A stretch of 64,000 bases of DNA, taken from the NCBI RefSeq assembly GCF_000739635.1, contig NZ_BATQ01000030.1, positions 1-64,000 on the forward strand, written 5' to 3'. Each line of letters opens with the position of its first letter. Position 1 is the first letter of the stretch. The notes under the pieces are model-generated. The model had not been told where the DNA came from. It did not search any database and saw nothing but the letters and a program-made list of their open reading frames with translations. The stretch comes from Verrucomicrobium sp. BvORR034. Its GTDB lineage: Bacteria > Verrucomicrobiota > Verrucomicrobiia > Verrucomicrobiales > Verrucomicrobiaceae. Position numbers and translations under genes: made by a program. Below, piece by piece: positions 15,885-64,000 of this stretch.

Positions 15885-15959
15885 TGCCGCAAGCGGCACG
15901 TTGAGACGCTGCGCTGGTTGAGGCGCTGCCGCTGGTTGAGGCGCTGCGGCTGGTTGAGG
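15881..15959 (+). repeat. GTGCCGCAAGCGGCAC hairpin plus GGTTGAGGCGCTG tandem units
   Basis: A perfect palindrome GTGCCGCAAGCGGCAC (15884-15899) is followed by three imperfect ~18-bp units of the form GGTTGAGGCGCTGCCGCT. The same palindrome and TTGAG/CTCAA units reappear inverted at 18440-18511, just before nnr. This suggests a dispersed repeat family whose units end in TTGAG. Confidence 0.6.
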
Positions 15960-16364
15960 CCGGGCGGAACTGTAGCGCAGATTGGTAATCTGCTGTGCCG
16001 CCGAGTGGCACTCGGCAAGGGGGGCGTATTTCCCGCTGGTGAGCCTCTTGGGATCTCCCACCGAAAGCGTCAGCTCCCGCCCCGCAGGCTGAAGCCTGTA
16101 CTCCGTACAACCTTGCCCCCAACACCTTGACGCACTGCCCACTGCCCACTGACGCACTGGACTGCCGCTCCCATCCACCCCCGACCCTACCTAAGCATTT
16201 GGTTTAGAGCGGATTAGGCCCGGGGCATCAGTGTCAAATGGCCATAAACAAATATCTAGGCAGCCCACATCATTTTTGGTCTAATTGCTTTGGAAATTCT
16301 CTCTAATAAATAACCAAGGGAGTTTCCTGCAGAGCATAACTGATAACATACCTATATAACAAAA
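15885..16364. other. Intergenic region with repeats, upstream of the prepilin gene
   Basis: Positions 15881-15959 hold imperfect tandem units of about 18 bp. One arm of a 74-bp inverted repeat follows at 16085-16158. From about 16190 the DNA turns AT-rich up to the prepilin start and probably holds its promoter (TATATA at 16353-16358); no -35 box could be fixed. No gene is supported. Confidence 0.5.
16085..16158 (+). repeat. Left arm of a 74-bp inverted repeat flanking the prepilin/amidase genes
   Basis: This segment (CAGGCTGAAGCCTGTACTCC ... GACGCACT) is nearly the exact reverse complement of 17963-18036, with only a few mismatches over 74 bp. It includes a small hairpin (CAGGCT/AGCCTG) and an internal direct repeat (ACTGCCC twice). 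The two arms enclose about 1.8 kb with two genes. Confidence 0.8.
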
Positions 16365-26283: not shown

Positions 26284-26310
26284 GGGGATTGCGAGATAGA
26301 GGGGGGTATC

Positions 26311-26342
26311 GCAAAACAAACGGGGCTTCCGGAGAAGCCCCG
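26311..26342 (-). terminator. Rho-independent terminator after the beta-helix protein gene
   Basis: Read on the minus strand, CGGGGCTTC (26342-26334) pairs with GAAGCCCCG (26329-26321) around a four-base loop and is followed by TTTGTTTTGC. It lies 15 bp after the stop of the 26357-32137 gene and before the Rhs start, separating the two transcripts at least partly. Confidence 0.85.
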
Positions 26343-26356
26343 CCGCGAGTGGTAAC

Positions 26357-29300
26357 TCAGGGAACAAGCACTGCGCCTGGCGGCTTGATCAGGGTGATGA
26401 CCGGTGAGGTCACGTCCCCTGGCACTGTGGGCAGTGTGCTGGCGGATGGATCGAGCGGGAAGGCATCCAGATTATCCGCCACACCGTCACCATCGCTGTC
26501 GGCGGAGAGGGGGCTGGTGCCTTTGGCCAGTTCATCAAGGTTGGAGACGCCGTCGCCATCGGAGTCGAGGCTGGCAGGATTGATGCCTGAGCTCCACGAT
26601 AAGCCGTCGAGCAACCCATCCCCGTTGCTGTCGGTCACGTTGTTTTGCGTGCCCAGCAGAGCTTCCTGCGCATTGGTGAGACCATCTCCGTCATCGTCAG
26701 CTGTCTCACTGGGGGAGTCATAGAGTACCCCGGCCAGGGCGATGGCCTCAGCGAGATCTGACATGCCGTCGCCATCGGTGTCAGCCACCTTCGGGTTCAG
26801 GCCGCAGAGGTACTCGTCGAGGTTCTTCAGGCCGTCTGGGGCGGGCAGATCCACGTCACCGGTGGCGGTTTGGGCCAGGTTGGTGAAGTAGAAGATTTCC
26901 CACCAGTCGGCCATGCCATCGGTGTCGGTATCCACGAATTCGTCGGCACCCAGGTCTGGGATGGACGTTCGAGTTTCCCCCTGGATGTCAGTGGATGAGG
27001 TGGACAGTGCGGTGACGCCGGGTTGGTTGATCGCGGGGCTGTTGGAGCGAAGCCAGCCTTCAGGAGTCAACTTCGGATCCAGGTTGATGCCGCCTTGTTC
27101 ACCACCCCTGACGATGGTATTGGTGAGGGTGAGGGTCGCTGTGGAGCCCTTGTAGATCTGCTTGCTGGTGACGTCATAGGGAGGATTCCAGATGATCGAG
27201 TTTCTGATTCTGGAAATGGATCCGGAATTCAGATAGAGTCCCAGGCCTGACGCGGTGAGGGAGTCGGCCATCGTCTCAGTGTTGTCCACAATGGTGCAGT
27301 GATCGACCACCATCTCTGCGTTGTTGAGGTAGATGCCGGCCCCATACTGGGTCTTGTTGCCTCTGATGAAGCAGTTGGCGATACGGACGAGCGTCCGGTA
27401 GTTCGGGGTGGGAATGGACACCCGGATGCCGCTGCCCGTCATGGGGTAGAGGTGGCTGATGACCAGGCCGTCGATGGCGGAACCATGCAGGTTCATGGCA
27501 ATCACATCATTGGCCGCAGTTGACTGTATGACCGGGAGATTGAGACCCTGGTCACCAAGAAGAAGGATCTTCTTGGTCGTCAACGCAAGGGCGCCTTCTG
27601 CGTATGTGCCGGGCTTGATGGCGATGATCTTCCAGTCACCGGCGGCGGCCTTGGCGGCCGTGAGGGCGGCACCGATGGTGGTGTAGATGCCCGCGCCTCC
27701 AGCAGGATTCACGGTGTAGTCCACCGTTGGCTTGCTGGCTGCGCTGTTGGCATCCGTACCGCGTGAGTACTCATACAGGTTGGGGATGCGGTCGCCGTCG
27801 CGATCTTCCATGGTGTCGCGGTAGTCGAGCGGATTGAGCACCTTGGAGATTTCATATCCATCCAGCATCGTGTCGTCGTCGGTGTCCGTGTCCCAGGGAT
27901 CTGAGCCAGCAGTGAACTCGGCGCCGTCATTGGCACCGTCAGCATCGGAGTCTGCGACGGCGGGATTGCTGCCGAAGGCATACTCCTGAGCTGCGGTAAG
28001 TCCGTCTGCGTCCGTGTTGGTGGTGCCGTTGGAGGCGAGGTTGCCGAAGAAGCGGGTTTCCCAGGCATCTGGCAGGCCGTCCGCATCGGAATCGCGGTAC
28101 TCGTCTGCACCGAGGTCGGGCGGATTGGTTCTCGTTTCACCGTGAATGTCTGTCAGCGAAACTGGCAGGGTCACACCGCCCACGGGGTTGATGGCCGGGC
28201 TGGTGGGCCTGAGGTTGCCAAAGCGATCCACCTGGGGATCGAGGTTGGTCCCGCCCTGCTCACCGCCGAGGACGATGCTGTTGCTCACCGAGCACTGGCC
28301 ACCGGAGATGATGTTGATCTGGGGAACGGAGGGGCCGGACGTGGGATTCCAGACAATGGAATTGCGCAGGCGCAGGTAGCTGTCATCTGAGACGTAGAAG
28401 CCGCGGCCGGTACCGCCTTCGCCGGTGGTTTCGTCACCCCGGTTGTTCACCACGGTGCAATGATCTACCAGCACCTCCCCACCTGCGAGAATGACGCCTC
28501 CGCTGGCGCAAGGGTTGTCTCGTACGACGCAGTTGACCAGCCGTACCTGGGAGCGATAGCCTGGGGTATCGACGTGGATGCCGCTCCAACCACTGAAGTA
28601 GAGGACATTGTGGGTGAAGACGAGGCCGTCAATGACCACGCCGCTGATCTTGGCCGTGATGCAGGAGGACGTCAAGTTGGAGGAAATCACGGGGGGGGAT
28701 GCGCCCTGCTCACCCATGAGCATGATGCGTTTGCCGCTCAGATCCAGCATGGCCTCAGTGTAGGTGCCAGGTTTCACCAGGATGATGCGGCAGTCATTCA
28801 CGCCTGCCTTGGCGGCGGTGATGGCGGCGGTGATGGTGGTATGGGTGCCTCCTCCGGCCGGATTCACGGTGTAGTCTGCGGCAGGCTTGCTGGCGGCGCT
28901 GTTGGCGTCGGTGGCGCGGATGAACTCATAGAGGTTGGGGATGCGGTCTCCGTCCTTGTCTTCCAGGGCGTCCTGGTAGTTGAGAGGATTGAGGGCCTTG
29001 GAGACCTCGTAACCGTCGGCGATGCCATCGTCATCGGAATCCGTGTCCCAGGGATCAGTGCCCGCGGTGAGCTCGCCGCCGTCGTTGAGGCCATCTGCAT
29101 CGGTGTCGGCCACGGCAGGATTGCTCCCAAAGGTGTACTCCTGGGCGGCGGTGAGGCCGTCCGCGTCCGCATTGGAGGTGCCATTGGAGGCGAGGTTGCC
29201 GTAGAAGCGCAGTTCCCAGGAATCTGGAAGGCCGTCACCGTCGGAGTCGATGTACTCATCAGCACCCCAATCGGAGGGGTTGCTGCGGGTTTCGCCATGG

Positions 29301-50900: not shown

Positions 50901-51670
50901 GGAAGGAGCTGGACTGTGACAAACTGGGGCTGCGGTTCGAGAACGTACCGCGCAAGCTGGCTGTGCAGTATCTGGCCTGCATTACGTCGCTCCGGCTGAT
51001 TGGACGCCGGGACGTCCATGACGATCGGCAGTGGCAGGACCTCTACATCTGGACGCCGCTGAAAAATGCGAACCTTGCGATCGCTTCGATCCATGAGCTG
51101 AAGCTCCCCGCTGGTGATCTGACCCGGAGTGCCATTGCGAATGTGCTGGTGACTACACTTTGTTTCCTGGATGCGGATGTCAATTCCCGCGAAGATGCGC
51201 CTCACAATTCGCCCCTCTACTTGAACTCAGATAGGGAGGTCCGTCTGATCACAGGTCGACAGGAGATCGATCCGAAGAGCCGGAGACTGATCCTGGAAGG
51301 GCTCATGCGCACCAGCAAGACGCGTCCCCAGGATCGGGGCTATGCCGAAGAAAAACTGAACGCATTGGACAAGCTCCTGGCGGTGTTCGGAGATGACGAG
51401 GTTGCGATTAATCGAGAGCATCGCCCAGAAGTTCCCATCGAAGCTGTGGCGGCCAAGAAGGCTGTGGCGGCCAAGAAGGCTGTGGCGGCCAAGAAGGCTG
51501 TGGCGGCCAAGAAGGCTGTGGAGGCCAAGAAAGTGGCGGCCAAGAAGGCTGTGGAGGCCAAGAAAGTGGCGGCCAAGAAGGCTGTGGAGGCCAAGAAAGT
51601 GGCGGCCAAGAAAGTGGCGGCCAAGAAAGTGGCGGCCAAGAAAGTGGCAGCCAAGAAGAGGGGGCGGTGA
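47906..51670 (+). CDS. Alpha/beta-hydrolase-CHAT protein with (VAAKKA)n tail
   Basis: A 1254-residue protein. Residues ~205-480 form an alpha/beta-hydrolase of the lipase/esterase type: [15 protein letters not shown] gives the oxyanion region, and THSRGG at 277-282 the nucleophile elbow (S279). A proline/glycine linker ([16 protein letters not shown]) leads to a CHAT domain (about 540-930), with FIGHGEFD (H784) and [11 protein letters not shown] (C830), the canonical dyad, then [14 protein letters not shown] third domain of ~230 residues ([32 protein letters not shown]) is unknown to me. The last ~75 residues are VAAKKA-type repeats. It shares its two-domain idea with the hydrolase-C14 protein at 32999. 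It stands alone after the Lys-rich gene; 193 bp separate the divergent starts. Confidence 0.87.
51443..51658 (+). repeat. In-frame tandem repeat encoding (VAAKKA)n
   Basis: Units of GCTGTGGCGGCCAAGAAG (18 bp) and GTGGCGGCCAAGAAA (15 bp) alternate for about 215 bp at the 3' end of the CHAT gene. The repeats are nearly identical at DNA level, so the tail length can change by slippage without shifting the frame. Confidence 0.9.
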
Positions 51671-51944
51671 TGATGTGCCAGCTTGATCCGTCGGTGACAG
51701 CCCATCTTTTTGGCAGCCTGAACTACTGGTTTCCTGAGTTCCCCAGTTTTATTTGATGGCAAATGCTTTGGCGCGATTGCGCCAAAGAAAGCATGCTCTG
51801 ATAGAGAGGTGGCGGCCCGGCTATCGGTGGACGGTGACAGCCTGTAGTGGGCAAATGACGAGGCTGACGCCGGAGCCGTAAGGACCGCTGAGTCTTGAGA
51901 TCAGTTTGTCGAGAGCCACACTCTGTTGACGGTCGGCTTCTTCG

Positions 51945-54131
51945 CTACAAGTGCGAGGGTCCAACATTGCGGGGGTGCGCTCGACAGCGAGATGGCAGTT
52001 CTGACCGGTTCACTGAAATGATGACGTCGCCCTGATGTATGCCGCTGAGTGCGGCGGGGCCGCCGGGAATCACCTTGTGTACCATGGGATAGGAGCATTT
52101 GTCCACCATGTGGGTCACCACCATGCCGACGCCCCAGGGCTGCCCGGTGGCCTGCTCTCTGTTGAAGGTGCGACGTACTTGGCGGGTGACGTAGTGGTGG
52201 TCACCCCAGCGGTAGAACCCCACGAGAAAGCTGGGCTTGGTCAGGGCATTGGAGACGACCTGCTGCAGTTCCAGAGCGTTGAGTTTTCTGGTCAGGTGGC
52301 CGTCGATTTCCTCGATCTGATCGTCGCTCATGAGCCCGGCGCGATTGGCCCTGCCCCAGTTGGTGACGCCGGTGATGTCGGCCGGGAAGAAGGTGGCGGG
52401 CCAGATGATGCCGGCAACGGTGCTGCCAAATTTTTCATCGAACCTGGAGGGCCGGCCCATCTTGGAGAAGGTGCCGCCCAGAAGCTCCTCCTGGGTGGGA
52501 ACGGGAACCGGAACCGGAGCGGGTACGGGGAGGGCGGGGAGGGCGGGCGAGGGCGTCACGATCACAGGTGCCGGCGCCGGCGCGGGAGTGGGTGCTGGCT
52601 TGTACGCGGGTGCTGGAGAAGGCTTCACCGGGCGTGGTTTTCCGGACGGGGCGGGTGAGGGGGGCGTGGGTGGGGTGTAGACCACTTCGTGCTTTGTCTT
52701 GATGACCCCGAGGATCTTGGGGAGGATGAGGGTGCCGACACCGAACATGAGGCCCAGGACAAGCAACAGGGCCAGAATGGCGCTGTAGGAGCGTTGCTTG
52801 ACGTGACTGCCGAGGCGGGTCTCGCTGATGAGCCAGCGCATGACTTCGTCAATGCCCCTGGACTTGAGGCTGCGGCCTTCCTGGGTGAGGGTGCTTGCGG
52901 CAAAGAAGCGCACATTCTGAAAGGAGCCGCGGGCAAGTTCGATGAAATTATGACCTCCGTGCTTCTCCAGGAACTTTTCGCACTGGTCGCTGGTGATGGT
53001 GGCGGGGTTGCCAATGCCGGCGCCGAATTCTGAGTGGAGGGTGGGGGAGTCGATCTTGTTCAGGATAACGGCCATGGGCCGGTTGACCTTGGCGCCGGAC
53101 CGGATGTCGTGGTTCTTCTGGAACTTGTTCAGCATCCGTGAGAAGGCGTCTTCTGTGTCATGGGTGGGGCTGAACCTTCCGGTGTGGGAGTTGAGCACGG
53201 CCAGGGCATCCACGACGACGACGAAGCCGTGGCTGTAGCCGTAGAAGTGGTGGGTATCGAGCGAGTTGCCGCCGGTGAAAACCTCGCCGGCGGAGTCATA
53301 GAGATGGAGGAGCTGGGGGATGCGGGAGCCGGTGTTGACCTTGAGGGTGTAGGCCTGGGCGTGGTGGGAGGAGGTCTTGAAGGGGTACCTGCCGGCGGCG
53401 GTCTCTGAGCGCAGGAGGTCGAGACTGGTGCTGGTGCGGTCATCGGCCGGGATGGCCTGCCAGCGCAGGGAGGGGGCGACGCGGGCGGCGACGGAGTCTG
53501 TGGCGGCGAAGATGAAGCAGGTCTTGCCGGAGTTGGGCGTGCCGATGACGGGAATGCAGAAGGGGGTGGTCTCTGCGTTTTCAATGGGGCGCCCGCAGTC
53601 CTCATGGGGGCAGCAGGCCTGATAGCGGGAGCGGCCGGTGAAGAAGCTGGTGACGAGTTTATGACCGCACTGGCAGGTTCTGAGGAAGATGCCGTGGGAG
53701 CCGGGGACGAGGCGGCTGTGGTGGGCGCCGCAGTTGGGGCAGATGTAGACGGGGATGTCGAACTTGCGGTGGCAATGAGGGCACGCGACGAAGACCCGGT
53801 AGATGAGCATGACCAGACGCTCTGCCAGGTAGAAGGCGGTGAAGATCACGTAAACGGTGAGGAAGAACACCGCCAGGGTGATGAGGTGGACGATGCTGGC
53901 GAGTGTGAAACCGACGGTGCCGAAGATGAGCACGCAAATGCCGGCCCACCCGCAGAGGATGCCCACGATCCACATCCACCACCCCTCGGAGAAGTACTTG
54001 CCGGCCAGGGCGGTCCAGGTGCCGAGGGATTCCAGGTTCAGGTTCCAGCTTTCCGTGATGGTGGCCCAGAGGTCGCGGTACCCTTTCCCAAAGAAATAGC
54101 TCTTTTTTGCCGGTTGTTCGATGGCAGGCAT
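51945..54131 (-). CDS. Membrane GTPase-like protein (DO-GTPase2-like) with PDZ C-terminus, apparently frameshifted end
   Basis: I start at the ATG at 54131 (728 residues). Two or three membrane helices (about residues 45-100) precede zinc ribbons (CPHCHRKFDIPVYICPNCGA, CCPHEDCG). A P-loop NTPase follows: VIGTPNSGKTCF (197-204), HLYDSAGEVF as the switch-II strand, and VILNKIDS as the base-specificity motif. Another helix (LALLLVLGLMFGVGTLILP) and a long Pro/Ala linker lead to a PDZ-like domain. The PDZ strand ISVN should continue as 'GEPVRT', but the frame shifts and stops early at 51945. The lost frame (EPVRTAISLSSAPPQ ...) runs on to 51901. Seven bases lost between two GTGAAC copies would explain it. 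It is the last gene of the GTPase operon. Confidence 0.82.
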   Translation of the reverse strand: MPAIEQPAKKSYFFGKGYRDLWATITESWNLNLESLGTWTALAGKYFSEGWWMWIVGILCGWAGICVLIFGTVGFTLASIVHLITLAVFFLTVYVIFTAFYLAERLVMLIYRVFVACPHCHRKFDIPVYICPNCGAHHSRLVPGSHGIFLRTCQCGHKLVTSFFTGRSRYQACCPHEDCGRPIENAETTPFCIPVIGTPNSGKTCFIFAATDSVAARVAPSLRWQAIPADDRTSTSLDLLRSETAAGRYPFKTSSHHAQAYTLKVNTGSRIPQLLHLYDSAGEVFTGGNSLDTHHFYGYSHGFVVVVDALAVLNSHTGRFSPTHDTEDAFSRMLNKFQKNHDIRSGAKVNRPMAVILNKIDSPTLHSEFGAGIGNPATITSDQCEKFLEKHGGHNFIELARGSFQNVRFFAASTLTQEGRSLKSRGIDEVMRWLISETRLGSHVKQRSYSAILALLLVLGLMFGVGTLILPKILGVIKTKHEVVYTPPTPPSPAPSGKPRPVKPSPAPAYKPAPTPAPAPAPVIVTPSPALPALPVPAPVPVPVPTQEELLGGTFSKMGRPSRFDEKFGSTVAGIIWPATFFPADITGVTNWGRANRAGLMSDDQIEEIDGHLTRKLNALELQQVVSNALTKPSFLVGFYRWGDHHYVTRQVRRTFNREQATGQPWGVGMVVTHMVDKCSYPMVHKVIPGGPAALSGIHQGDVIISVNRSELPSRCRAHPRNVGPSHL

Positions 54132-54138
54132 GAGGTGT

Positions 54139-54426
54139 TCAGGAGCGGAAGTAAGCGATGACGATGAGGGACAGGGCCGCGAAGGTGAGGACGCCAAGGA
54201 TGATCTTGGCGGTCATGCCGTCGTGATCCCCCTCGGGGCGGACGTTGTTGATAAAGGCCCGGGCGTAGTTGGTCCCGGCGATGCCCAGGCCCAGCACGCC
54301 ACCCAGGGCGAGGGTGGCGGGCAGGACGAAGACAAAAAGGACGTACAGCACGGCAAGGGCCGCGGCGATGGCGAGGACCACGCCGATGCAGACGAAGACA
54401 GCTTCAGAATCTTTGTCGTTGGCCAT
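54139..54426 (-). CDS. Small membrane protein of the GTPase operon
   Basis: A 95-residue protein with a hydrophobic pair of helices (about 10-50: VFVCIGVVLAIAAALAVLYV, then LALGGVLGLGIAGTNYARAF) and a C-terminal helix (AKIILGVLTFAALSLIVIAY). It lies between the GAP1-like and DO-GTPase2-like genes with gaps of 6 and 7 bp, so it is certainly part of the operon. No catalytic motif is visible. It probably forms a membrane anchor or channel partner for the GTPase next to it. Confidence 0.8.
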   Translation of the reverse strand: MANDKDSEAVFVCIGVVLAIAAALAVLYVLFVFVLPATLALGGVLGLGIAGTNYARAFINNVRPEGDHDGMTAKIILGVLTFAALSLIVIAYFRS

Positions 54427-54432
54427 GGTCTG

Positions 54433-56790
54433 CTATTGGTTGTTGCCTAGAAGCCTGTCCCAGAGCCCCCGTTTGGCAGAGGGTGGGGCGGCGGGGCTGT
54501 GGGCGATGGCGGTGTCTGCTTCCTGCAGGATCTCCCGCCAGGGGGTGGTGCTGTAGTTGGGCTTGTGGCGCAGGGGCTGGGTGCCGCGTTCATAGGATGA
54601 CCTGCCCAGGTCCTCGAAGGCGCAGACAAATGACTGGCTCAGCCGGGGCCAGATGGGTGGGGAGGAGCGGGCGGTGGTGGTGGAGGGCAGGGCATCCAGG
54701 GGGAAGACGCTGTGTGCGATGCGCACGGCGCGGGGGATGCTCTTTTCCGGCTCGGGATCCTGCAGGAGGCCGTCATCGAGCAGCTCTGAGAAGACCTGGG
54801 CGTAGTCGGTGTGACGGCGCTGGCAGAGGTTGCTGCACACGATGTGGAGGTGGTCCTCAGACTGGATGCGTCTCCAGAGGGAGCGGGTCCAGTATTTGGC
54901 GTAGGCGGAGTAGGATGTGGTGAGTTTCTCCAACTCCAGCAACGAGGTGGTGAGGCCGGGGAGGCGGTCCAGCGGCTGGAGGAACTGTTGGGGGTCTGAG
55001 AGGAAGGAGGCGAGGGCGAGGGTGCCGTTGGACAGCCTGGACCGCCGGGCATAGTCGTGGAGTTGCAGGATGGCGTTGCGATTTCTGGGGGACCAGGGGG
55101 GGAGGCCGAGCAGGGCTTCGGGAGAGTCGAAGCGGGCGGGGCTGGCGGAGAGGCGGATGATGATCTCCCCCAGGCCGAGGGTCTCCAGCTTGGAGAAAAC
55201 CCGGCTTTTCGTCTCCTGATCCAGGGGATCAAAGATGGCGGCAAGGGTCTCTTCCAACACGGCGCCCTGGGGTTTGTCTCCCGCCTGGTGCAGGGTGAGG
55301 GCGAGGAAGATGTACAGGGCATCTGGCTGCTGACCGGCGGGCAGGGTGAGGCGGTGCCTGGTGAGGTGGGTGCAGGCGTTGGCGAGCTCCCTGGTGCCGG
55401 GGAGGCCCCAGGGCTCCTGGACAGAGGCGAGGAGCACGGAGAGGGCCTGGAGCAGGGGCGGCGCCAGCTGGGGGTCCTTGAACGCACGGAGGATGGCGTC
55501 CTGTTGTTTGATCAGGCCGACATCACCCAGGATTGCGGCACCCAGGCCGTGGCCGGAGTTGATGAGGGGGGTGATGGCCTGGACGATGTCTGCCGGCCTG
55601 CCCTGGCGCAGGAAGGCGGCCAGGCTCTCCCAGAAGAAGCGCTTGCGGAGGGTGGCGTCTCCGTCGCGTGTGGTTATTTCCTTGTGCACAAGCAGTGAGG
55701 TGAGGGCCTGAGTCTTCTCCAGGTCAGGGGTGGAGAAGAAGGTTTGCAGTGACGCTGGGGCAGAGAGCGTGTCGTATGCGGGTTGGAAGAATCCGGGAGC
55801 GCCTGACTTGATCCCCAGGTTCAGGGCGGAGGTGAATGCCTGGGGGGTGCAAGGTTGGTCGAGGCTGCCCAACAGACGCCAGAGGAGGGTGCCGTCCTGG
55901 AGTTGCTGATCGAGGGCCGGACTGCCGAGTGTGTCCAGGAAGGCGAAGAAGTCGGTGGTGTTTTGAGCCGGGAGTTCGGCCAGTGTTTCGACACAGTCCA
56001 CATAGAGGTCGGCCGGTGGAGGGGGGGCCGATTCGAGGAAACTGAACTGCTGGCCGCGATCCATCTCGCTGCGGATGTAGGGGGGGAGCGGCTCTGCGAG
56101 GGCCTGCAGGGCGAATCTGGCATGGGGCCGGGGATCGTTGCAGTAGGAGATGCCCGTGAGCTGGTGGGCAATGCTCAGGGGGTACAGGCTTTGCCAGTAC
56201 TGCATGTAGAAGAGCCAGCCCTTGGTGAAGGAGTCTGGCAGCACGAGGCTTTTACCCAAAGGCAGGCGGCGCAGGATGTCGCCGATCTCCTCCCGGCAAT
56301 TTCTGACGGCTTCGGCGCGGTCCTCGTCGGAGACGGGCAGGGAGGGCGAGACCTCCTCCTCGGCGAGGTTGGCGGCGGGCAGGGGCCAGCCACCGGCGGT
56401 TTCCCTGGCTATCTCATCGCGGAAGGTGAGCGGGTCCCGGAAGGCGGGGCTGTCCAGATAGAGGGCGGGGAGGCCGGGGAGGAGGCCCTGGTGCCAGATG
56501 AAGGCCTGGGCGATGAAATTACCGTAGCGGCCGGTGTAGTCCTTCCCGATGTACTGGGACTTCATCACGCCATAGCGGCCGGAGGCGAGCTTGAAGAAGA
56601 CGTGCTTGGTGGGGAAGGTGCGGAGCTGCTCATCCGTGGGGGCGGGTGGGGCGGACTTGGCCGGCTTGTACTCCACCAGCTGGGTTAGTTCCTGCAACTC
56701 GGGAGCGGTGAGATCCGGGGAGGCGCTGTGGATCTCAAACCCGCGCTGGGGGCAGGAGGTGTAGACAAAAGGGAGCCAGGGCTTGGACAT
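54433..56790 (-). CDS. GAP1-like GTPase-associated protein
   Basis: 785 residues from the ATG at 56790; the frame upstream is Pro/His-rich and not real. The N-terminus reads FVYTSCPQRGFEIHSASPDL, then FKLASGRYGVMKSQYIGKDY and TGRYGNFIAQAFIWHQ. This is the pattern of the GAP1 N-terminal domain (TSCP, GRYxxx-x-YxGxDYTGRxGN-FxH) of GTPase-associated proteins in bacterial conflict systems. The remaining ~550 residues are mostly alpha-helical, HEAT-like, with no catalytic motif I recognise. It is sandwiched between the DO-GTPase1-like gene (14-bp gap) and the small membrane gene. In these systems GAP1 is thought to couple the GTPases to the other components; its biochemical role is unknown. Confidence 0.8.
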   Translation of the reverse strand: MSKPWLPFVYTSCPQRGFEIHSASPDLTAPELQELTQLVEYKPAKSAPPAPTDEQLRTFPTKHVFFKLASGRYGVMKSQYIGKDYTGRYGNFIAQAFIWHQGLLPGLPALYLDSPAFRDPLTFRDEIARETAGGWPLPAANLAEEEVSPSLPVSDEDRAEAVRNCREEIGDILRRLPLGKSLVLPDSFTKGWLFYMQYWQSLYPLSIAHQLTGISYCNDPRPHARFALQALAEPLPPYIRSEMDRGQQFSFLESAPPPPADLYVDCVETLAELPAQNTTDFFAFLDTLGSPALDQQLQDGTLLWRLLGSLDQPCTPQAFTSALNLGIKSGAPGFFQPAYDTLSAPASLQTFFSTPDLEKTQALTSLLVHKEITTRDGDATLRKRFFWESLAAFLRQGRPADIVQAITPLINSGHGLGAAILGDVGLIKQQDAILRAFKDPQLAPPLLQALSVLLASVQEPWGLPGTRELANACTHLTRHRLTLPAGQQPDALYIFLALTLHQAGDKPQGAVLEETLAAIFDPLDQETKSRVFSKLETLGLGEIIIRLSASPARFDSPEALLGLPPWSPRNRNAILQLHDYARRSRLSNGTLALASFLSDPQQFLQPLDRLPGLTTSLLELEKLTTSYSAYAKYWTRSLWRRIQSEDHLHIVCSNLCQRRHTDYAQVFSELLDDGLLQDPEPEKSIPRAVRIAHSVFPLDALPSTTTARSSPPIWPRLSQSFVCAFEDLGRSSYERGTQPLRHKPNYSTTPWREILQEADTAIAHSPAAPPSAKRGLWDRLLGNNQ

Positions 56791-56804
56791 GGGGGGTCGG
56801 GGCT

Positions 56805-57887
56805 TTACTTTTGGGTGGGGACGATGCCGCGGCGGCCGAGGTGCCAGACGAGGGGGTCGAGGATGCGGATGGGGTTGACCTCCGGGATCTGGTTTGAGGA
56901 GCCGGGGTTGCAACCGAGTGCGGAGATGCCGAAGTACCCGTGCTCAGGGAAGTTCCCCTCCACCTGGCTGCGGACGCCGTGGGCCTTCCAGTCGTGGAGG
57001 CAGGCCTGCATTTCCCCGTGGAGGTCGTCGAACTCGGCCTGGCTGAAGCTGCCGACGTGCTTGCTGGGATGGCGCAGGGCGGAATCCGGGGGCAGGGTGG
57101 GGAGGAGGGTGTCGATCTTGGTGAAGGCGACGGCAAGGGGGATGGGGATGTCCTTGCGTTCCGGCAGGTCCCAGGCCTTGTGAATGAGGTTGGCGGTTCT
57201 GGAAATAATGTCCTCCACGTTGCCGTTCTGCTGGGGGAGGTGGAGGGAGGAGGGGAGGGTCTCGCGGACGCCGGTGAGCTGCAGCGGATCCATGAGCAGG
57301 ATGATGCCGTCGGACTTGTAGATGTACTTGTTGACCCTGCTCATGACGTCCTCGGCATTCAGGTCCTCCCCGGCGGTGTCGTAGAAGGAGAGGATCACTA
57401 CCTCCGGGCGGCGGTTGCCCCGCTTGACGGAGAGCTTGAAGAGAAGGGGGCGGGTGGTGGGGCCGTGGGTGCGGCCGGACTGGGTGCCGTCGATGACGAG
57501 CTTGTCATTGAAGACCCGGCCGTAGAATTCACTGCGGTACCGGTCGATGGTTTCATCATTGAGGGGGCGGATGTGCCAGTTGAACTGGGGGCTGCGCTTG
57601 ATCCACTCCACCAGCACGGCGATGAAGTGGCTCTTGCCGGCCTCCTTGGCGCCGATGATGGCGAGGCTGAGGGGGCGGAGGCCGTCGAAGTAGTCGCTGG
57701 CGGTGGCGGGGAGCTCATCGTGGCAGTGCGGGCAGACGACGCGGTTGCCCTGGGTGCCATCCTTGAGCTTGAAGGTCTCGAAACAGAAGGGGCAGTCGAT
57801 CTGGCGCTTGCCGGTAAGAGGAGACAACAGCTTGCGCCTCCACTTGTCGAGGGCGGATGACAGCGATGAGGTGAGGTCGTCATTCAT
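56805..57887 (-). CDS. DO-GTPase1-like P-loop GTPase with zinc ribbon
   Basis: A 360-residue soluble protein. A zinc ribbon (CPFC at 32-35 and CPHC at 52-55) precedes a P-loop domain with IIGAKEAGKSHF (G79-S86), ILSFYDTAGEDLN as the DxxG switch II, and LAVAFTKIDTLL as the TKxD base motif. These place it in the TRAFAC class, in the 'double GTPase' group that occurs in pairs with a membrane partner, here the 51945 protein. Its start lies 2 bp after the stop of the FN3 protein gene, so it is translationally coupled. The domain layout (ribbon, then GTPase, no membrane helix) is typical. It is probably the soluble half of a two-GTPase switch. Confidence 0.83.
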   Translation of the reverse strand: MNDDLTSSLSSALDKWRRKLLSPLTGKRQIDCPFCFETFKLKDGTQGNRVVCPHCHDELPATASDYFDGLRPLSLAIIGAKEAGKSHFIAVLVEWIKRSPQFNWHIRPLNDETIDRYRSEFYGRVFNDKLVIDGTQSGRTHGPTTRPLLFKLSVKRGNRRPEVVILSFYDTAGEDLNAEDVMSRVNKYIYKSDGIILLMDPLQLTGVRETLPSSLHLPQQNGNVEDIISRTANLIHKAWDLPERKDIPIPLAVAFTKIDTLLPTLPPDSALRHPSKHVGSFSQAEFDDLHGEMQACLHDWKAHGVRSQVEGNFPEHGYFGISALGCNPGSSNQIPEVNPIRILDPLVWHLGRRGIVPTQK

Positions 57888-57889
57888 GG

Positions 57890-60889
57890 TCAGCGGGCCG
57901 GGAGGCGGAGGGATTGTGGGTCCGGTTTCAGGATGCGGAAGCGGGGGGCGTCCTTGGGGTCGGCCAGGACGAGGCTGACATAGGCGCCGGGGGTGAAGGC
58001 CAGGCCTTCGAGGGGGATGATGTGTTCCTCGCCGGCGGCGATGAGCACCGGGGGGACTGGTTTGAGCACCTCTCCGTCGCCCGACCGACGGGGGACGTGC
58101 TCTGCGTTCTGCACGAGCTGGAGGGGAGGGGTCTGGATGCCGGCCTGGTTGGTGCGGATGGCGAGGTGGGGCTTTTTGAAGAAGCCGCCCTTCACCACCC
58201 GGAAGCTGATCTCGGCCGGGGGTTCGAGGTAAGCGACGAGGGCGGTCCCGGTGGTGGCCTGGTCCCCGGACGGGGTGGGCATGAGGGCGGCCACCCGGAG
58301 GTGGTGGTTGCGGGCCTCGGTGGGGCGCAGGCGGTAGGAGCCCTGGGGCTGGTTTCCCTCCCGGAGCACTTCCACCCGGGTGCCTGCCTGGTCATACCGG
58401 GCGATGGGGGTGAAGCTGTAGCCGATGGCGGCACGGGTGACGTTGTCCGGCCAGGTCCAGGTGATGTGGACCTCACCGGCGATGACGTTCATGGCGCAGT
58501 CGTGCAGCTCCTCCATGACGAGCACGGAGCTGGTGGGGCCGACGAGGGCGGTGTTCCCCTGGCGGGTGTAGGCCAGGTAGTGGTGGGTGCCGGCGGTGCC
58601 GGGCAGGTGCTCGGCCCTGGTGGGGGTGAGGATGGGCACCTGTTGCCCGATGGCGTCCAGATCCGCGAGAGACAGCATTTGCCCTGGCCGGGGTCCGGAG
58701 GGCTGGTTGAGCAGGAGCACACCTGGAGAGCCGCTGGTAAGGGGGGCCCAGGTGAGCTGGACCTTGCCGGCGCTGAAGAGGGCCTTGAAGTGGCTGACGG
58801 CCTCCGGCGGGGTGATGGGGGTGGTGAGCTGGGTGAGGCCTGTGGAATACACCTGGGCCCCGGTGATGGTGGTGTAGCAGACCTTGACCAGATAGCCGTA
58901 AGGGGTGCCGTTCTTAAGTCCGGAGTCCGTGACGCCCTGGGAACCGGCACCGGCCAGCTGCCTGCCGTCCTGGGGTGAGGCGGGCACGCTGTGCTCCTTG
59001 CGGGTGATCTGGACGGAACAGTTGCCCGGAGGCAGAGTCCACTGGAGATTGACCAGGCCGTCTCCGGGGAGCACGCGGAAGCCGGTGACGTCTGGAACGG
59101 CGGTGACGCCCTTCGTGGCGGCGGCGGTGGAGGACACGACGCCGAGACGGCTGGTGGTGATGGTGTACTCGTAGGTGTGGCCGGGCTCGACCGAGGTGTC
59201 GAAGTGCCCGCTCGCGGAGGCCTTGGGTTCGAGGACTTTCGCCTGGGTCTCCCTCAGGTTCAGGTTCCGTCTGCTCACAACATAGGTGACGGGCAGGGGG
59301 GAGGCCACGGCGGGCCAGGTGATCTGGATGCCGCTGCCTGAGTACTGGGCGAGGGCGCTGGAAGGGGCCGGTGGGGCCATGCCTTTGGCCAGGGCGGCAA
59401 CTTCCGTGAGGTCCCCGCCGAGGGCGGTGGCCTGCTGGAGCTTGCGCAGGGCGGACTCGAGCTTGCCTGCGCTCAGTTCAGCCGCGGCGTCCCGGGCGGT
59501 CTGCTGCGCCTCCTGCCGCTGCCGGGTGGCTTTTTCCGCGAGGGGGCGGACGCTCTCCGGGTGGGCGCTGGCGCGGATGCGCTGCTCCGCGGCGGCAATC
59601 CTGCCGGCATCCAGGAGTTTCTGTATTTCCTCGACCTCCGCCTTTTGGGCGGTGAGGAGGGCGTGGAGTTCCGCGCGGGTCCTGGCGGATTCTGGCATGC
59701 CGGGCCAGTAGCGGTCTGCCCGGCCGAGCTGGAGCGCGGCCTCGGCGAACTTTTTCTCTGCGATGAGGGTCTGGGCGTTCCTGATGCAGGGGTGGGCGAG
59801 CACCATGTCCCCCAAGTGGAAGCCGCATTTCGTGCAGGCCACGTCGCGGACGCGGGAGGGGCTTTTGCACTTGGGGCAGTCAATGGCGAGCGGCTGGCCG
59901 CAGTGCTTGCAGTAGGTGGCCTTGTCAGCGTTCAGCGTATGGCAGGAGGGGCAGGCATCCTGGTGCTCGACGGAGAGGTGCTGGGGCTTGTAGAGGATGT
60001 AGTTTTTCTGCCTCGCCAGCTCACGGATGCAGGCCTCCACCCGGGCGAGTTCCGCGCCGGTCTCCAGTCCGTTTCTGACGAGGGCATCGTAGCTCTCCGC
60101 GCTGATCTCCTTGTTGACGACGGCCAGGCGGATGGCTTCCTCGAGGGGTTTGAGGACCTCATTCTCCAGGGCCAGTTCATAGGACCGCCTGGGGTCCTCC
60201 TGGGTGGGGTCGAAGATGATCTTGGCTTTTCCTGAGAGCCGGCTGCCTGCCTCCACCTTGGGCTCCTTTTTGGTGAAGCTCTGGTAGTGTTTCCACTTGA
60301 TGTCCGCCTGGGCGTGAAGGGTGGTTGTGGAAGTGCGGCGGGAGCAGGGGGTGACCTCGTCTGAGAGGAAGGCAAAGAGGTCGGCCTTCTCCAGAATCTG
60401 GAGGTCTTCCAGGATGACCTTGTAGTCCGTGGACTTCATGGGCTTGACGCCCGCGTCCTCGCCGCCGGAGGTTTTGGTTTCTTCCTTGAACCCGACCTTG
60501 ATGCGGGACCGGACCTCCGCCTCGGTGAAGATGCCGGACATGACCTTGACGAGCTGGGCGAGGTCCGCCGGGGTGACGTAGCCTTTGGCGGAGGCGACGA
60601 GCACCAGGTTGTCCAGCCGGGGGCCGCCGTCCCGTTTGCGGCGCACGATCTCCTCCTTCGCCTCCTGCACGAGCTTCTGGAAGGCGGTTGCATCCGGACG
60701 GGCGAGGAGGTCCCCCTCTATGTCCTTGATCCGGGCGAGGGCGAGGTCGGCCCTTTTGGCAACGGGTCCCTGGGCCAGGCTCTGGCTGTTCCATTCTGCC
60801 TTCTTCTTGTCGATCTGGGCTTTGATGCGGCCCACGTCCAGATCGGAGGGGTCCCATTCGATAAGCAGGAAAGGATTGTCGGGGATCAT
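57890..60889 (-). CDS. Large zinc-ribbon/FN3-domain scaffold protein of the GTPase operon
   Basis: A 999-residue cytoplasmic-looking protein without a signal peptide. Residues 1-290 are helical with coiled-coil patterns (IKAQIDKKKAEWNSQ). At about 300-365 lie two or three zinc ribbons (CPSCHTLNADKATYCKHCGQ, CPKCKSPSRVRDVACTKCGF). A TPR-like helical array follows (KKFAEAALQLGRADRYWPG, LSAGKLESALRKLQQA). The rest carries three or four fibronectin type III domains (ITWPAVASPLPVTYVVSRRN, VNLQWTLPPGNCSVQI) and ends in a beta-rich domain (GGFFKKPHLAIRTNQAGIQ). Intracellular FN3 repeats joined to zinc ribbons are found in bacterial Hsp70/GTPase systems of this type. It is probably a scaffold that binds clients or chaperones. 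Confidence 0.75.
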   Translation of the reverse strand: MIPDNPFLLIEWDPSDLDVGRIKAQIDKKKAEWNSQSLAQGPVAKRADLALARIKDIEGDLLARPDATAFQKLVQEAKEEIVRRKRDGGPRLDNLVLVASAKGYVTPADLAQLVKVMSGIFTEAEVRSRIKVGFKEETKTSGGEDAGVKPMKSTDYKVILEDLQILEKADLFAFLSDEVTPCSRRTSTTTLHAQADIKWKHYQSFTKKEPKVEAGSRLSGKAKIIFDPTQEDPRRSYELALENEVLKPLEEAIRLAVVNKEISAESYDALVRNGLETGAELARVEACIRELARQKNYILYKPQHLSVEHQDACPSCHTLNADKATYCKHCGQPLAIDCPKCKSPSRVRDVACTKCGFHLGDMVLAHPCIRNAQTLIAEKKFAEAALQLGRADRYWPGMPESARTRAELHALLTAQKAEVEEIQKLLDAGRIAAAEQRIRASAHPESVRPLAEKATRQRQEAQQTARDAAAELSAGKLESALRKLQQATALGGDLTEVAALAKGMAPPAPSSALAQYSGSGIQITWPAVASPLPVTYVVSRRNLNLRETQAKVLEPKASASGHFDTSVEPGHTYEYTITTSRLGVVSSTAAATKGVTAVPDVTGFRVLPGDGLVNLQWTLPPGNCSVQITRKEHSVPASPQDGRQLAGAGSQGVTDSGLKNGTPYGYLVKVCYTTITGAQVYSTGLTQLTTPITPPEAVSHFKALFSAGKVQLTWAPLTSGSPGVLLLNQPSGPRPGQMLSLADLDAIGQQVPILTPTRAEHLPGTAGTHHYLAYTRQGNTALVGPTSSVLVMEELHDCAMNVIAGEVHITWTWPDNVTRAAIGYSFTPIARYDQAGTRVEVLREGNQPQGSYRLRPTEARNHHLRVAALMPTPSGDQATTGTALVAYLEPPAEISFRVVKGGFFKKPHLAIRTNQAGIQTPPLQLVQNAEHVPRRSGDGEVLKPVPPVLIAAGEEHIIPLEGLAFTPGAYVSLVLADPKDAPRFRILKPDPQSLRLPAR

Positions 60890-60908
60890 GGCAGGCGGTG
60901 GGGGGAGG

Positions 60909-62992
60909 CTAGCCGAAGAATCTGATCTGCCGCTGGTCGGTGGTGCCGCCGGGGAGGTGGCAGGCCTGGGACTCTGTCATGACCTGGGCGATGCGGCCGA
61001 ATTGCTCTGTGATCTGCCCCATGTCCGTGAGGAGGGCGGACTCCTCACTGTTGGCGATGCTGGTGAGAAACTCCTGATCCGCACCGCCGAAGCCCATGGA
61101 GACGATTTGCACTCCTGCGGCCTTGAGGCGGTCTGCGGCGGAGATGGCGGCACTCGCGTGACTCCACACGCCATCGGTGAGGAGGAGCACGTAGCGGTTC
61201 CCATCGATGTCTGCGAGTTGAGCTCCCAGCGCGTCGAAAGGATGGGCCGCATTGCCGTAGCCCACGTCGGGGATTTTCCAGCTCTGGATGCCGCGCTCCA
61301 GGTCCTTGGCAGACTGGGTGAGGGGGGCCACGGTGCGGTTTTCATCGGCGAAGATGTGGAGGCCCACGGAGCTGGTGGAGAGGTCCAGGTGATGGATGAA
61401 GTTCCGGGCGGCTTCCTTGGCCTTTTCCAGCGGTTCACCGGACATGCTGCCGGAGAGGTCGACGGCGATGAAGATGGAGAGATGGGTGGGGGCGGTGGTG
61501 GTGAGCTCTGTAGGAGACTTGTGCAGCCAGTCCATGTCTGCCGGAGAGCGGTCCACGGAGACCGGCAGCTTCTTGCCGCTGCTGCGCTGGGTGGCCTCCA
61601 CCTGCACGACGCCGTTTTGATCATAGCGGTAGCCGATGTCGAGCACGGCGGTGCCTCCTGGTTCGGGATCGATGCCGGAGATGACGTACTTGCCCAGCAG
61701 GGAGCAGTGCAGGGGGTTCTCTGACTCTCCCTGGAGGACGTACACGTCTGTGGCGTTGGTGCCGGATCTGCGGGTGCGTTGCTGGAAGGGGCGGACCTGG
61801 TGGGAGGGGATCTTCTGGTTCTTGGGCAGGATGATGGAGTTGATGAAGGCGGAACGGTCCTGCTTTTCCGCGACCATGCCGAGACTGTGGGCCATGACAT
61901 CGGTGACGGCCATGGGCCCGCCGAGGCAGTGGATCTTGCCGGACGGGATGGTGCGGCGGCTGGCCTCCAGGGCGGCGCCCAGGGCGACGGCCTCATCAGG
62001 ATTGACGCCGGTGGCGAAGTGGCCGCGGAACTCTGTCTGGAGGGCGCTGCGCACCATGGGCATGCGGGTGGAGCCGCCCACGCAGACGATCTCCTGGACG
62101 TTCTGCCAGTTCTTTCCTACATCCGCGAGGGCCTGATTGGTGAGCAGCAGGGTGCGGGCGGTGAGGTCCTGGGAGGCGGATTCAAAATCGCTGCGACTCA
62201 CCTCGTAGCTGCCGCGCAGTCCGGCGTAGGTCACGGCCACGCGGGCCTTGTCGCGGGTGGAGAGCTGGAGCTTGGCGGTCTCGCAGCGGACGGTGAGGTC
62301 CAGGCAGCCGAGCGGGTCCTCCAGGGGGTTCTCACCATGTTCTTCATGGAACTTGTCTGCGATGATGCGGACGAGGCGGTCATCCCAGTTCTTGCCGCCC
62401 AGCTGGTGATCCCCGTCACTGCCGAGGACGGTGATGCCGTCCGGGCTGATCTGGACGATGGTGACGTCGAAGGTGCCGCCGCCCAGGTCATAGACGAGCA
62501 CGGTCTTTTCCGCGTGGGTGCGGTCGGTGCCGAAGGCGATGGCGGCGGCGGTGGGCTCGTTGATGATGCCGAGGACGTTGATGCCGGCCTGGCGCCCGGC
62601 GAGGAGGGTGTCCTCCCGCATGTTGTTGTCGAAGTAGGCCGGGGTGGTGATGACGGCGGAGGGGCTGGAGGCGCCGGCCACCTCCGCGGTCAGGTGTTGG
62701 AGGACGATGGCGGAGAGCGCCACGGCGGAGTAGCTTTTCCCGTGATGTTCTACCGCGAACCCGGGGTTGCCCATGTGCCGTTTGAAATAACAGGCGATCC
62801 CCGGCTCGCCGGCCTCCTGGGCGGCCTTGGCCGCGGTGCCGACGACGGGGGGCTGGCCCGGACCGGCGAAGTGGATGACGGAGGGGGTGGTGGGGACCCT
62901 TCCTGGTTGGGGAGGATGACCGGCCGCCCCTCTGTCATGCGGGCCACGACGGAGAAGGTGGTGCCAAGGTCGATGCCGAGGGGGGAGGTCAT
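60909..62992 (-). CDS. Hsp70-vWA fusion protein, with an apparent frameshift near residue 32
   Basis: The protein starts at the ATG at 62992 as MTSPLGIDLGTTFSVVARMT, then VILPNQEG, but the frame then shifts. The rest, RVPTTPSVIHFAGPGQPP onward, continues in the frame that ends at 60909. The join at about 62900 needs four bases (a second AGGG) to be correct. After repair the chain (~695 residues) has a full Hsp70 ATPase: phosphate loops IDLGTTFS and VYDLGGGTFDVTIV, connect motif NEPTAAAIAFG, adenosine motif VCVGGSTRMPMV. A short linker domain leads to a vWA domain with MIDAS residues in AVDLSGSMSGEP and LLLTDGVWSHA. It follows another Hsp70 gene by 23 bp. Either a real mutation or a sequencing error could cause the shift. 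Confidence 0.82.
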
Positions 62993-63015
62993 GCCTGGGG
63001 AGGGGAGGTGGGGTT

Positions 63016-64000
63016 TCAGGAGTGAACGGCCATGAGGGCGCTGCGCTTGATGGCGTCCTCCAGCTCCTGGCCCTGGATGACGTTGGTGGTCTGGATGGTG
63101 ACGTCCACCTTGTTGCCGGTGGTGCGCTCCGTGGCCTGGATGTCGAGGGTGCCGTCCCGCTTGAGGGTGAACTTGACCTCGATGGGGGTGTTCTTGGGCA
63201 TGGGCCGGCCGAAGGAGAGCACGCCGAAGCCGATCTCGTTGCTCTGCTCCACCTCCACGACCTCGACGGAGAGCTCGTTTTCCACGACCTTGATGTCCAC
63301 ACCGATCTGGCCTTCATGGAAGGTGACGAAGGGTTTTTCCACCTCGGTGGGCAGCGGGGAGTTGCGGTAGATGAGGTTGGTGACCTGGGGGTTGCCGGCC
63401 GCGTCCACGGAGACCATGCCGAAGCTCTTGGCGCAGACGGACTTGTCTGTGATGGAGATGCTGCTGACGAGGGTGGTCAGGTCCGTGCCCTGTGAGATGG
63501 CAATCTCTTCGAGCGTCTTGCGGTCGTCCTCCGAGAGGTTCTGGACCTCCTCTGCGCTGGTGGGGGCGGTGCCGATGGCCTCCTGGATGCGCTTGAGGAG
63601 GGCGCGGTTGTGGGCGACGATGGCGGCGCCGCGGGCCACGGCTTCATCGGGATCAAAGAGCCGCGGCTTGGTGCCGAACGCCTTCTCCACGGCGAGGCCG
63701 ATCTGGGGCATGCGGCAGGAGCCGCCGACGAGGATGATCTCATCGAACCTGGTGTGGCCCTTGGTGGCGGCCGCCTCGAGGGCGCGACGGGTGATGTCGA
63801 TGGTCTGCTGGAGCAGATCTGAGGTGAGGTCGTCGAACTCCTGGCGGCTGACCTCGATCTTCTCGCGGTTCTTGCCGAACTGGGCGGAGTAGCTGGCCTT
63901 GTCGCTGACGGAGAGGCGCTTCTTGATGCTGCGTTCTGCGCCGTCCTGGAAGTCGGCCATGGTCTGGGCGTCGTTGAAGAGGTCGTCCTCATCCGTGTCG
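63016..64000 (-). CDS. Hsp70 (DnaK-like) chaperone, C-terminal part cut by window edge
   Basis: The frame is open to the right edge and covers ~327 residues. It holds the end of the Hsp70 ATPase: IEVSRQEFDDLTSDLLQQTI, EIILVGGSCRMPQIGLAVEK (adenosine motif), LFDPDEAVARGAAIVAHN. A helical insert (AEEVQNLSEDDRKTLEEI) and a substrate-binding beta-sandwich follow: SFGMVSVDAAGNP, GVLSFGRPMPKNTPIEV, then LDIQATERTTGNKVDV. There is no long alpha-helical lid, so it ends earlier than canonical DnaK. Its N-terminal ATPase half lies beyond the window. It is the most upstream visible gene of the GTPase operon and pairs with the Hsp70-vWA fusion, forming a specialised chaperone set rather than the housekeeping DnaK. 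Confidence 0.88.
   Translation of the reverse strand, partial: DTDEDDLFNDAQTMADFQDGAERSIKKRLSVSDKASYSAQFGKNREKIEVSRQEFDDLTSDLLQQTIDITRRALEAAATKGHTRFDEIILVGGSCRMPQIGLAVEKAFGTKPRLFDPDEAVARGAAIVAHNRALLKRIQEAIGTAPTSAEEVQNLSEDDRKTLEEIAISQGTDLTTLVSSISITDKSVCAKSFGMVSVDAAGNPQVTNLIYRNSPLPTEVEKPFVTFHEGQIGVDIKVVENELSVEVVEVEQSNEIGFGVLSFGRPMPKNTPIEVKFTLKRDGTLDIQATERTTGNKVDVTIQTTNVIQGQELEDAIKRSALMAVHS

What the first reader, a model, noticed from the sequence alone, without database searches (positions are those of the whole stretch)
51945..64000. GTPase/GAP1/Hsp70-vWA conflict operon adjacent to the protease island
Seven tightly spaced minus-strand genes match the parts known from NTP-dependent conflict systems: DO-GTPase1, DO-GTPase2, GAP1, Hsp70, Hsp70-vWA and a zinc-ribbon/FN3 scaffold. 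The biochemical job of these systems is largely unknown. Lying ~270 bp from the protease island, it may supply the regulated sensor for it, or both may belong to a defence hotspot.
Basis: partly seen in the sequence, partly recalled or inferred. Interest (0 to 1): 0.74.

Follow-up and report, generated by a model that had tools for sequence, protein, structure and literature searches.

The report
GTPase-gated Hsp70 operon, convergent to proteases
A tight bacterial operon combines membrane GTPases with a specialised Hsp70 chaperone set; it belongs to an already described but untested class of suspected defence systems, and its closeness to a protease gene cluster is not repeated in relatives, so it is probably accidental.

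Summary
The operon matches GAP1-N2 (E 7.6e-21), two DO-GTPase2 domains, Hsp70, Hsp70-vWA and a zinc-ribbon/FN3 protein, and runs past the window to the contig end, adding GrpE, a NACHT NTPase and a Sel1 protein. It belongs to the GAP1-N2 GTPase-centric class, HSP70/GrpE theme, of Kaur et al. 2020 (PMC7159879). My searches showed no experimental study of the class.

The proposed partnership with the protease island is not supported. The clusters are convergent. C14 or CHAT was found near GAP1 in none of 47 other GAP1-bearing genomes of the phylum. Among 27 Hsp70-vWA loci elsewhere, C14 was found close in two Poribacteria without detected GAP1 and CHAT in one locus, not far from chance.

Beyond the text I read: the second Hsp70 carries a MIDAS vWA at the lid's place; the scaffold has two J-domain-like folds lacking HPD in 21 of 21 members aligned; core order and strand agree in 16 of 17 named loci that show all six genes, from six phyla. 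The window's Hsp70-vWA gene has a frameshift. Proposed: a membrane GTPase switch gating Hsp70-driven assembly; function inferred.

The parts
51945..54131 (-). Membrane DO-GTPase2: hydrophobic N-terminal stretch, zinc-ribbon-like cysteines (by eye), GTPase domain (GTPNSGKT, DSAGE), C-terminal hydrophobic stretch, PDZ (two stretches)
   Evidence: PF19993 E 1.1e-11, PDZ E 4.1e-10; hydropathy 50-111 and 447-477; motifs
54139..54426 (-). 95-aa hydrophobic protein; corresponds to the N-terminal membrane part of the GTPase, which is in one frame with it in the Lentisphaerae homologue (L087 = L102)
54433..56790 (-). GAP1 with GAP1-N2 domain, 785 aa
   Evidence: PF20013 E 7.6e-21; structure model mean pLDDT 63, not used for a fold search
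56805..57887 (-). DO-GTPase2 without hydrophobic stretch, N-terminal zinc-ribbon-like cysteines, DTAGE, 360 aa
   Evidence: PF19993 E 1.9e-7
57890..60889 (-). 999-aa scaffold: two J-domain-like folds without HPD (about residues 3-87 and 153-245), double zinc ribbon 313-356, FN3 repeats
60909..62992 (-). Hsp70-vWA: Hsp70 ATPase domain and SBD-beta followed by a MIDAS vWA where the lid would be; frameshift near 62900
   Evidence: HSP70 5.5e-89, VWA 4.2e-14; homologue L095 aligned to DnaK; frames
63016..64000 (-). Hsp70, 550 aa, ends near where the lid would start; continues to 64668 on the contig
   Evidence: HSP70 6.1e-109; DnaK alignment

Best explanation
It is a GAP1-N2-type GTPase-centric system (HSP70/GrpE theme) in which a dedicated Hsp70 set is used as a signalling or assembly machine rather than a general folding machine. 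Proposed working: (1) the PDZ-bearing membrane DO-GTPase and the soluble DO-GTPase pair near the membrane and switch on GTP; GAP1 reads the pair [inferred]. (2) The FN3 protein is scaffold and a probable sensor; its two HPD-less J-like domains dock the two Hsp70s without the normal trigger of ATP hydrolysis [fold and HPD absence computed; docking inferred]. (3) Hsp70 (ending before a lid) and Hsp70-vWA (vWA at the lid position) hold a client peptide or metal-bound ligand, and GrpE resets them [domain layout computed; action inferred]. (4) On switching, the Hsp70s release or assemble the effector, here most likely the co-operonic NACHT NTPase [inferred; this gene is not conserved]. The outcome is probably containment or death of an infected or damaged cell [inferred]. 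Class and anatomy: about 0.95. Mechanism as a whole: as scored.
For: Family matches over cut-off. Core order GrpE-Hsp70-Hsp70vWA-ZnFN3-DO-GTPase-GAP1 on one strand in 16 of the 17 named loci that show all six (L104 is the exception), and in the window; 27 named vWA-bearing loci in all, of which 20 show GAP1. D-x-S-G-S of MIDAS in 25 of 27 Hsp70-vWA proteins tabled, window included. D-x-[AP]-G-E, the Walker B glutamate of DO-GTPases, in 39 of 41 GTPase frames, window included. The J-like model has J-domains or J-chimaeras as its five best rows (best Z 7.5, 69 aligned), and HPD is absent in both J-like stretches in 21 of 21 rows. Neighbours in single loci: LRR-Roc-COR-TIR, NERD, PNP phosphorylase, PIN/GreAB-C, MTES_1575 helicase-nuclease. 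Sporadic: Hsp70-vWA in 3 of 387 genomes of the phylum; no GAP1-N2 in the three same-genus genomes. Class and predicted conflict role in print.
Against: No functional data. PADLOC has no clear model for it. Some loci sit beside housekeeping genes (flagellar genes in L095; two symporter genes). The NACHT and Sel1 genes had no homologue in the 87 other loci by single-seed iterated HMM, a test of limited reach, so an effector role rests on position alone. The J-like matches are weak: best J-domain row E 4.6 in Foldseek, Z under 8 in VIA, a level the tool calls common for helical models; Pfam DnaJ hits only 2 of 21 (best E 0.027). The frameshift may mean that this copy is inactive.
Confidence: 0.5

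Rival explanations
1. A non-defensive envelope or proteostasis-stress machine: the membrane GTPase senses wall or membrane damage through PDZ, and the Hsp70 set remodels membrane-associated complexes.
For: PDZ and hydrophobic parts; complete Hsp70/GrpE set with ATPase motifs kept in most members; some loci beside housekeeping genes; a DO-GTPase family protein noted in PSP operons and with membrane stress (PMC11237479, passages only).
Against: Sporadic presence within the phylum (3 of 387) and no GAP1-N2 in the same-genus genomes; neighbours of conflict type in some loci.
Confidence: 0.3
2. One reading: the operon is the regulated sensor that activates the neighbouring C14/C11/CHAT protease island.
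For: 274 bp apart; two Poribacteria have C14 proteins upstream of an Hsp70-vWA/GrpE/Hsp70 cluster; an acidobacterial locus has CHAT about 6.5 kb away.
Against: Convergent; no close pairing found in 47 other GAP1 genomes of the phylum; the Poribacterial loci lack detected GAP1, DO-GTPase and FN3 protein; observed numbers not far from expectation; CHAT relatives without the operon.
Confidence: 0.06
3. A secretion- or transfer-coupled system: the chaperone set handles clients for a T4SS-coupling-protein-like ATPase at the membrane.
For: 4 of 82 scanned neighbour genes match T4SS coupling-protein families: L102 and L109 shown by name, L099 and L111 inferred from like starts and place.
Against: Four of 27 loci at most; none seen in the window; no other T4SS gene recognised among the families listed.
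Confidence: 0.1

Closest known systems
GAP1-N2-type GTPase-centric conflict systems, HSP70/GrpE theme (Kaur et al. 2020, PMC7159879; sections 27 and 29 read in full, other passages)
   Same: GAP1-N2, two DO-GTPases, a membrane form that can carry PDZ, zinc ribbons, FNIII protein, HSP70 plus GrpE and a second HSP70
   Different: The text says theme 2 is mostly in actinobacteria and firmicutes, that the second HSP70 lacks its peptide-binding domain, and that the FNIII protein is typically fused to DnaJ or TPR; here the second Hsp70 keeps SBD-beta and gains a vWA, both J-like domains lack HPD, and relatives lie in several other phyla. Figure 6B and the source data could not be seen and may show such forms.
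Type III CoCoNuT systems (PMC11090510, passages only)
   Same: Combine a GTPase, Hsp70-like domains and vWA proteins in predicted defence operons
   Different: McrB-type GTPase, McrC relatives and TerY-P triads; 'DO-GTPase' and 'DnaJ' have no occurrence in its main text
DnaK-DnaJ-GrpE machine (general knowledge, recalled)
   Same: Hsp70 and GrpE homologues, J-like domains
   Different: Hsp70s end before a lid or carry vWA at its place; J-like domains lack HPD; DO-GTPase and GAP1 partners

Membership tests
GAP1-N2-type GTPase-centric system | GAP1 with GAP1-N2 domain | tested here: met
   PF20013 75 bits vs cut-off 24
GAP1-N2-type GTPase-centric system | DO-GTPase with conserved Walker B glutamate, in part of the systems two copies | tested here: met
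   PF19993 over cut-off twice; DSAGE and DTAGE
GAP1-N2-type GTPase-centric system | If two GTPases, one with four N-terminal and one C-terminal TM | tested here: inconclusive
   Hydropathy shows hydrophobic stretches in the 95-aa gene and at 50-111 and 447-477 of the GTPase; exact number not resolved; split over two genes here
GAP1-N2-type GTPase-centric system | FNIII-repeat protein | tested here: met
   Profile of 15 homologous C-terminal parts (of 24 proteins at hand) finds fibronectin chains, E 2.3e-9; fn3 in 7 of 15 members, not in the window's own
HSP70/GrpE theme | HSP70 plus GrpE in the operon | tested here: met
   HSP70 6.1e-109, GrpE 3.3e-14
HSP70/GrpE theme | FNIII protein fused to DnaJ domain or TPR | tested here: inconclusive
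   J-like folds by model (Z 7.5 and 5.5), no HPD; Pfam DnaJ 2 of 21
Defence system | Protects against phage or other invaders | not testable with these tools
   No experiment; PADLOC has no clear model
Protease-island partnership | Conserved linkage of GAP1 operon and C14/CHAT genes | tested here: not met

The most novel reading that the evidence does not exclude
A widespread form of Hsp70 machine turned into a switch: two Hsp70s without the normal lid, one with a metal-binding vWA domain in its place, docked on a sensor scaffold by two HPD-less pseudo-J domains and gated by a membrane GTPase pair. It would use Hsp70's client grip as a signalling latch, not for folding.
Probability: 0.3. Interest if true: 0.75.

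Novelty: new variant of a known kind. Interest (0 to 1): 0.45.

Why it matters
Systems of this class are in print only as predictions in what I could search. The set described here is compact, has a fixed gene order in several phyla, and occurs in strains with names (complete in Alkalihalobacterium chitinilyticum, L095; in Clostridium hydrogenum, L096, without detected GTPase and GAP1), which makes the question what DO-GTPases and GAP1 do directly testable. If the pseudo-J and vWA reading holds, it shows Hsp70 used as a regulated latch.

Tried and rejected
Protease-island coupling: rejected as above. My first test used one-sequence HMMs of the window's C14, C11 and CHAT and found none in the 87 other loci. 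This was too insensitive: Pfam later found three C14 genes in the loci L090-L117, which are those of L113 (one) and L117 (two). I therefore rely. Limits of these: the list shows only 25 of 99 families, so a family with a single member may be hidden; genes under 230 aa were not given to it; the list was cut at its end; and contig numbers of the genome tool could be tied to a named contig with certainty only for L101 and by position for L113 and L117. A second home-made check found CHAT only at the left edge of L101 and C14 only in L113 and L117, but its seeds are narrow too (it did not find the window's own CHAT).

GAP1 fold: model with mean pLDDT 63 from 19 sequences, not searched. Virus link: the Hsp70-vWA scan of viral contigs found no relative. 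Plasmids gave 41 records with partial matches, none covering 80% of the query; those named among the 15 listed were DnaK or HscA. No PDB chain matched the soluble GTPase by phmmer up to E 1. Foldseek rows for the J-like model had no E under 0.25. I suspected from memory a polymorphic-toxin-like C-terminus in the Sel1 protein; plasmids gave no match and ncbifam only weak ones; dropped. No promoter or terminator consensus at 51600-52050. Tree of Hsp70-vWA: clustered by phylum (8 changes, the least possible), so wide transfer is not shown; the window joins two Bacteroidota at 90/69 only.

Rows dropped: G280 (GAP1-N2 under cut-off) was left out. L115 and L118-L122 (no vWA match) were left out. Of 24 FN3 proteins at hand, A2 holds 21: L096, L101 and L107 were left out because my choice of start cut their N-terminus; A5 holds 15: L096, L098, L101, L107, L108, L109, L111, L112 and L114 were left out. 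A3 holds GAP1 proteins of 700 aa or more only. L092 (gene cut by the contig end) is not. L087 and L102 are the same locus. In one search the window's Hsp70-vWA row still had its out-of-frame N-terminus.
Full report
What is there. The window is positions 1-64000 of contig C171 (69702 bases) of an 8.58-Mb genome in 200 contigs. From 51945 to the end of the contig the main genes are on the minus strand with gaps of 2-59 bp. In order of transcription from the contig end: a Sel1-repeat protein (cut by the contig end; Sel1 at 27.4 bits, under its cut-off of 30.7), a NACHT NTPase with a hydrophobic N-terminal stretch, GrpE, Hsp70 (550 aa), Hsp70-vWA, a 999-aa zinc-ribbon/FN3 protein, a soluble DO-GTPase2, GAP1 (GAP1-N2), a 95-aa hydrophobic protein, and a membrane DO-GTPase2 with PDZ. 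In the Lentisphaerae homologue the 95-aa part and the membrane GTPase are one frame. The genome shows one GAP1-N2 and two DO-GTPase2 matches, all here.

Damage. The start of Hsp70-vWA, with the ATP-site motif GIDLGTT, lies in another frame than the rest of the gene. Of 27 Hsp70-vWA proteins in the table, 24 show GIDLGTT; the window and the two Poribacteria do not. In a draft assembly, sequencing error and true inactivation cannot be told apart.

Relatives in the phylum. GAP1-N2 over cut-off occurs in 48 of 288 genomes drawn and in 39 of 189 of the order. Three same-genus genomes have no match; one is a single contig of 8.2 Mb, one is 76% complete. I examined 54 GAP1 neighbourhoods by HMM; only L087 has the Hsp70-vWA set, and one more (L065) has an Hsp70 match. 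Many of these stretches are cut by contig ends. Hsp70-vWA occurs in 3 of 387 genomes of the phylum: this one and two of another family.

Relatives elsewhere. A scan of named genomes with the Hsp70-vWA C-terminal half gave 33 loci; 27 have the vWA part. By the groups of the tree they lie in Bacteroidota, Bacillota, Acidobacteriota, Pseudomonadota, Lentisphaerota, Cloacimonadota, Chloroflexota, Myxococcota and Poribacteria; L116 has no group, and L092 (titled Thiotrichaceae) is not in the tree. GAP1 is found in 20 of the 27. Of the seven without it, L099 and L103 end at a contig end, L092, L093 and L096 show none, and the two Poribacteria have another layout. Where GrpE, Hsp70, Hsp70-vWA, ZnFN3, DO-GTPase and GAP1 are all seen (17 loci), order and strand are the same in 16, from six phyla (Bacteroidota, Bacillota, Acidobacteriota, Pseudomonadota, Lentisphaerota, Cloacimonadota), some with inserted genes; in L104 (Chloroflexota) the GTPase and a second GAP1 match lie on the other strand.

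Domain detail. An Hsp70-vWA homologue (L095) aligns with two DnaK chains over the ATPase domain and SBD-beta to its residues 477 and 480, after which vWA follows; the window's Hsp70 aligns to DnaK residue 488 and ends seven residues later. That the DnaK lid begins about there is recalled. D-x-S-G-S is in 25 of 27. Mean pairwise identity over 17 sets: Hsp70 and Hsp70-vWA ATPase domains 0.48, vWA 0.39, soluble GTPase 0.35, GAP1-N 0.30, FN3 part 0.23, rest of GAP1 0.15. So GAP1's C-terminal part varies even more than the FN3 part; both are candidates for a sensing surface.

J-like domains. The model of residues 1-370 has mean pLDDT 86. In the VIA list, J-domains or J-chimaeras fill ranks 1-5 (Z 6.5-7.5, model residues 3-87), and J-domains recur for residues 153-245 (Hsp40 and DnaJ, Z 5.5); 14-3-3 helices reach Z 5.4, and the tool warns that Z under 8, or under about 13 for helical models, may be a common arrangement. 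Sequence agrees in part: N-Y-Y-x-L-L-like at the start, and K-x-x-Y-D-like at the end of the second. HPD occurs in neither stretch in 21 of 21 rows. HPD as the trigger of Hsp70 hydrolysis is established knowledge, recalled.

Extra genes. T4SS coupling-protein families match 4 of 82 neighbour genes; the terms TraG and VirD4 do not occur in the main text of PMC7159879. Single loci carry LRR-Roc-COR-TIR and NERD (L100), PNP phosphorylase (L110), PIN/GreAB-C proteins (L107), and an MTES_1575 helicase-nuclease (L096). L090, L110 and L100 carry a protein of about 880 aa without a Pfam family over its cut-off, alike in layout by eye. The window's NACHT and Sel1 proteins had no homologue in the other 87 loci by single-seed HMM.

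Link to the protease island. The island (C14 at 32999, C11 at 36825, nSTAND1-WD40 at 40883, DUF7379-CHAT at 47906) is on the plus strand, so the clusters are convergent. Among 48 GAP1-N2 genomes searched (the window's and 47 others), C14 is in 10 and CHAT in 4, window's included; apart from the window the only shared contig is in G187, about 1 Mb (C14) and 1.3 Mb (CHAT) from GAP1. Among the 27 named genomes, 14 have C14 and 10 CHAT. C14 found close: three genes in the two Poribacteria. CHAT found close: one, in the contig of L101. Expected within 10 kb on either side: 0.35 and 0.43 (from match counts and genome sizes). Two Poribacteria with C14 is thus more than expected, but they are near kin (64-65% identical C14 proteins) and lack the GTPase part. 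The CHAT protein has two long relatives among 67 other family genomes (46% over residues 66-1036; 43% over 573-1129); their neighbourhoods of 14 and 20 kb show none of the operon's genes and no other island gene in my searches. The conclusion is limited by short contigs.

Comparison with the literature. Kaur et al. 2020 describe the class, PDZ-bearing membrane GTPases and the HSP70/GrpE theme and infer a conflict role (passages). Searches for later work: one search found two papers with the class's terms, the other one on alignment methods; searches gave no experimental study of the class that I could recognise from the listings. PMC8195603 has no occurrence of GAP1.

Verdict. A real, well-conserved member of a known predicted class, in a form with vWA-fused Hsp70 and HPD-less J-like domains that the text I read does not describe. 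The special claim of the finding, coupling to the protease island, is not supported.

Noticed in passing
window 20836-32137, minus strand: Two very long ORFs of 1843 and 1926 aa; the first has RHS repeats and a glucodextranase-B-like domain.
   Followed up: no
L113:3235-6147; L117:269-6080: In two Poribacteria, C14 proteins of about 970-1000 aa lie upstream of an Hsp70-vWA/GrpE/Hsp70 cluster without detected GAP1; their Hsp70-vWA lacks D-x-S-G-S.
   Followed up: partly
L099, L102, L109, L111: T4SS coupling-protein-like ATPases next to or inside the GTPase-Hsp70 operon, with small charged-looking proteins nearby in L099, L102 and L111.
   Followed up: no
L090:1469-4096, L110:3822-6479, L100:17987-20680: Proteins of about 880 aa, alike in layout by eye, with no P-loop by the pattern used.
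   Followed up: partly
L115 (Pseudanabaena cinerea): Four Hsp70 genes around a GrpE gene, beside two genes whose starts look vWA-like by eye; an Hsp70 cluster without the vWA fusion.
   Followed up: no
window 13218-16178 and 9060-10394, minus strand: An outer-membrane efflux protein (OEP) frame and a MacB/FtsX permease.
   Followed up: no
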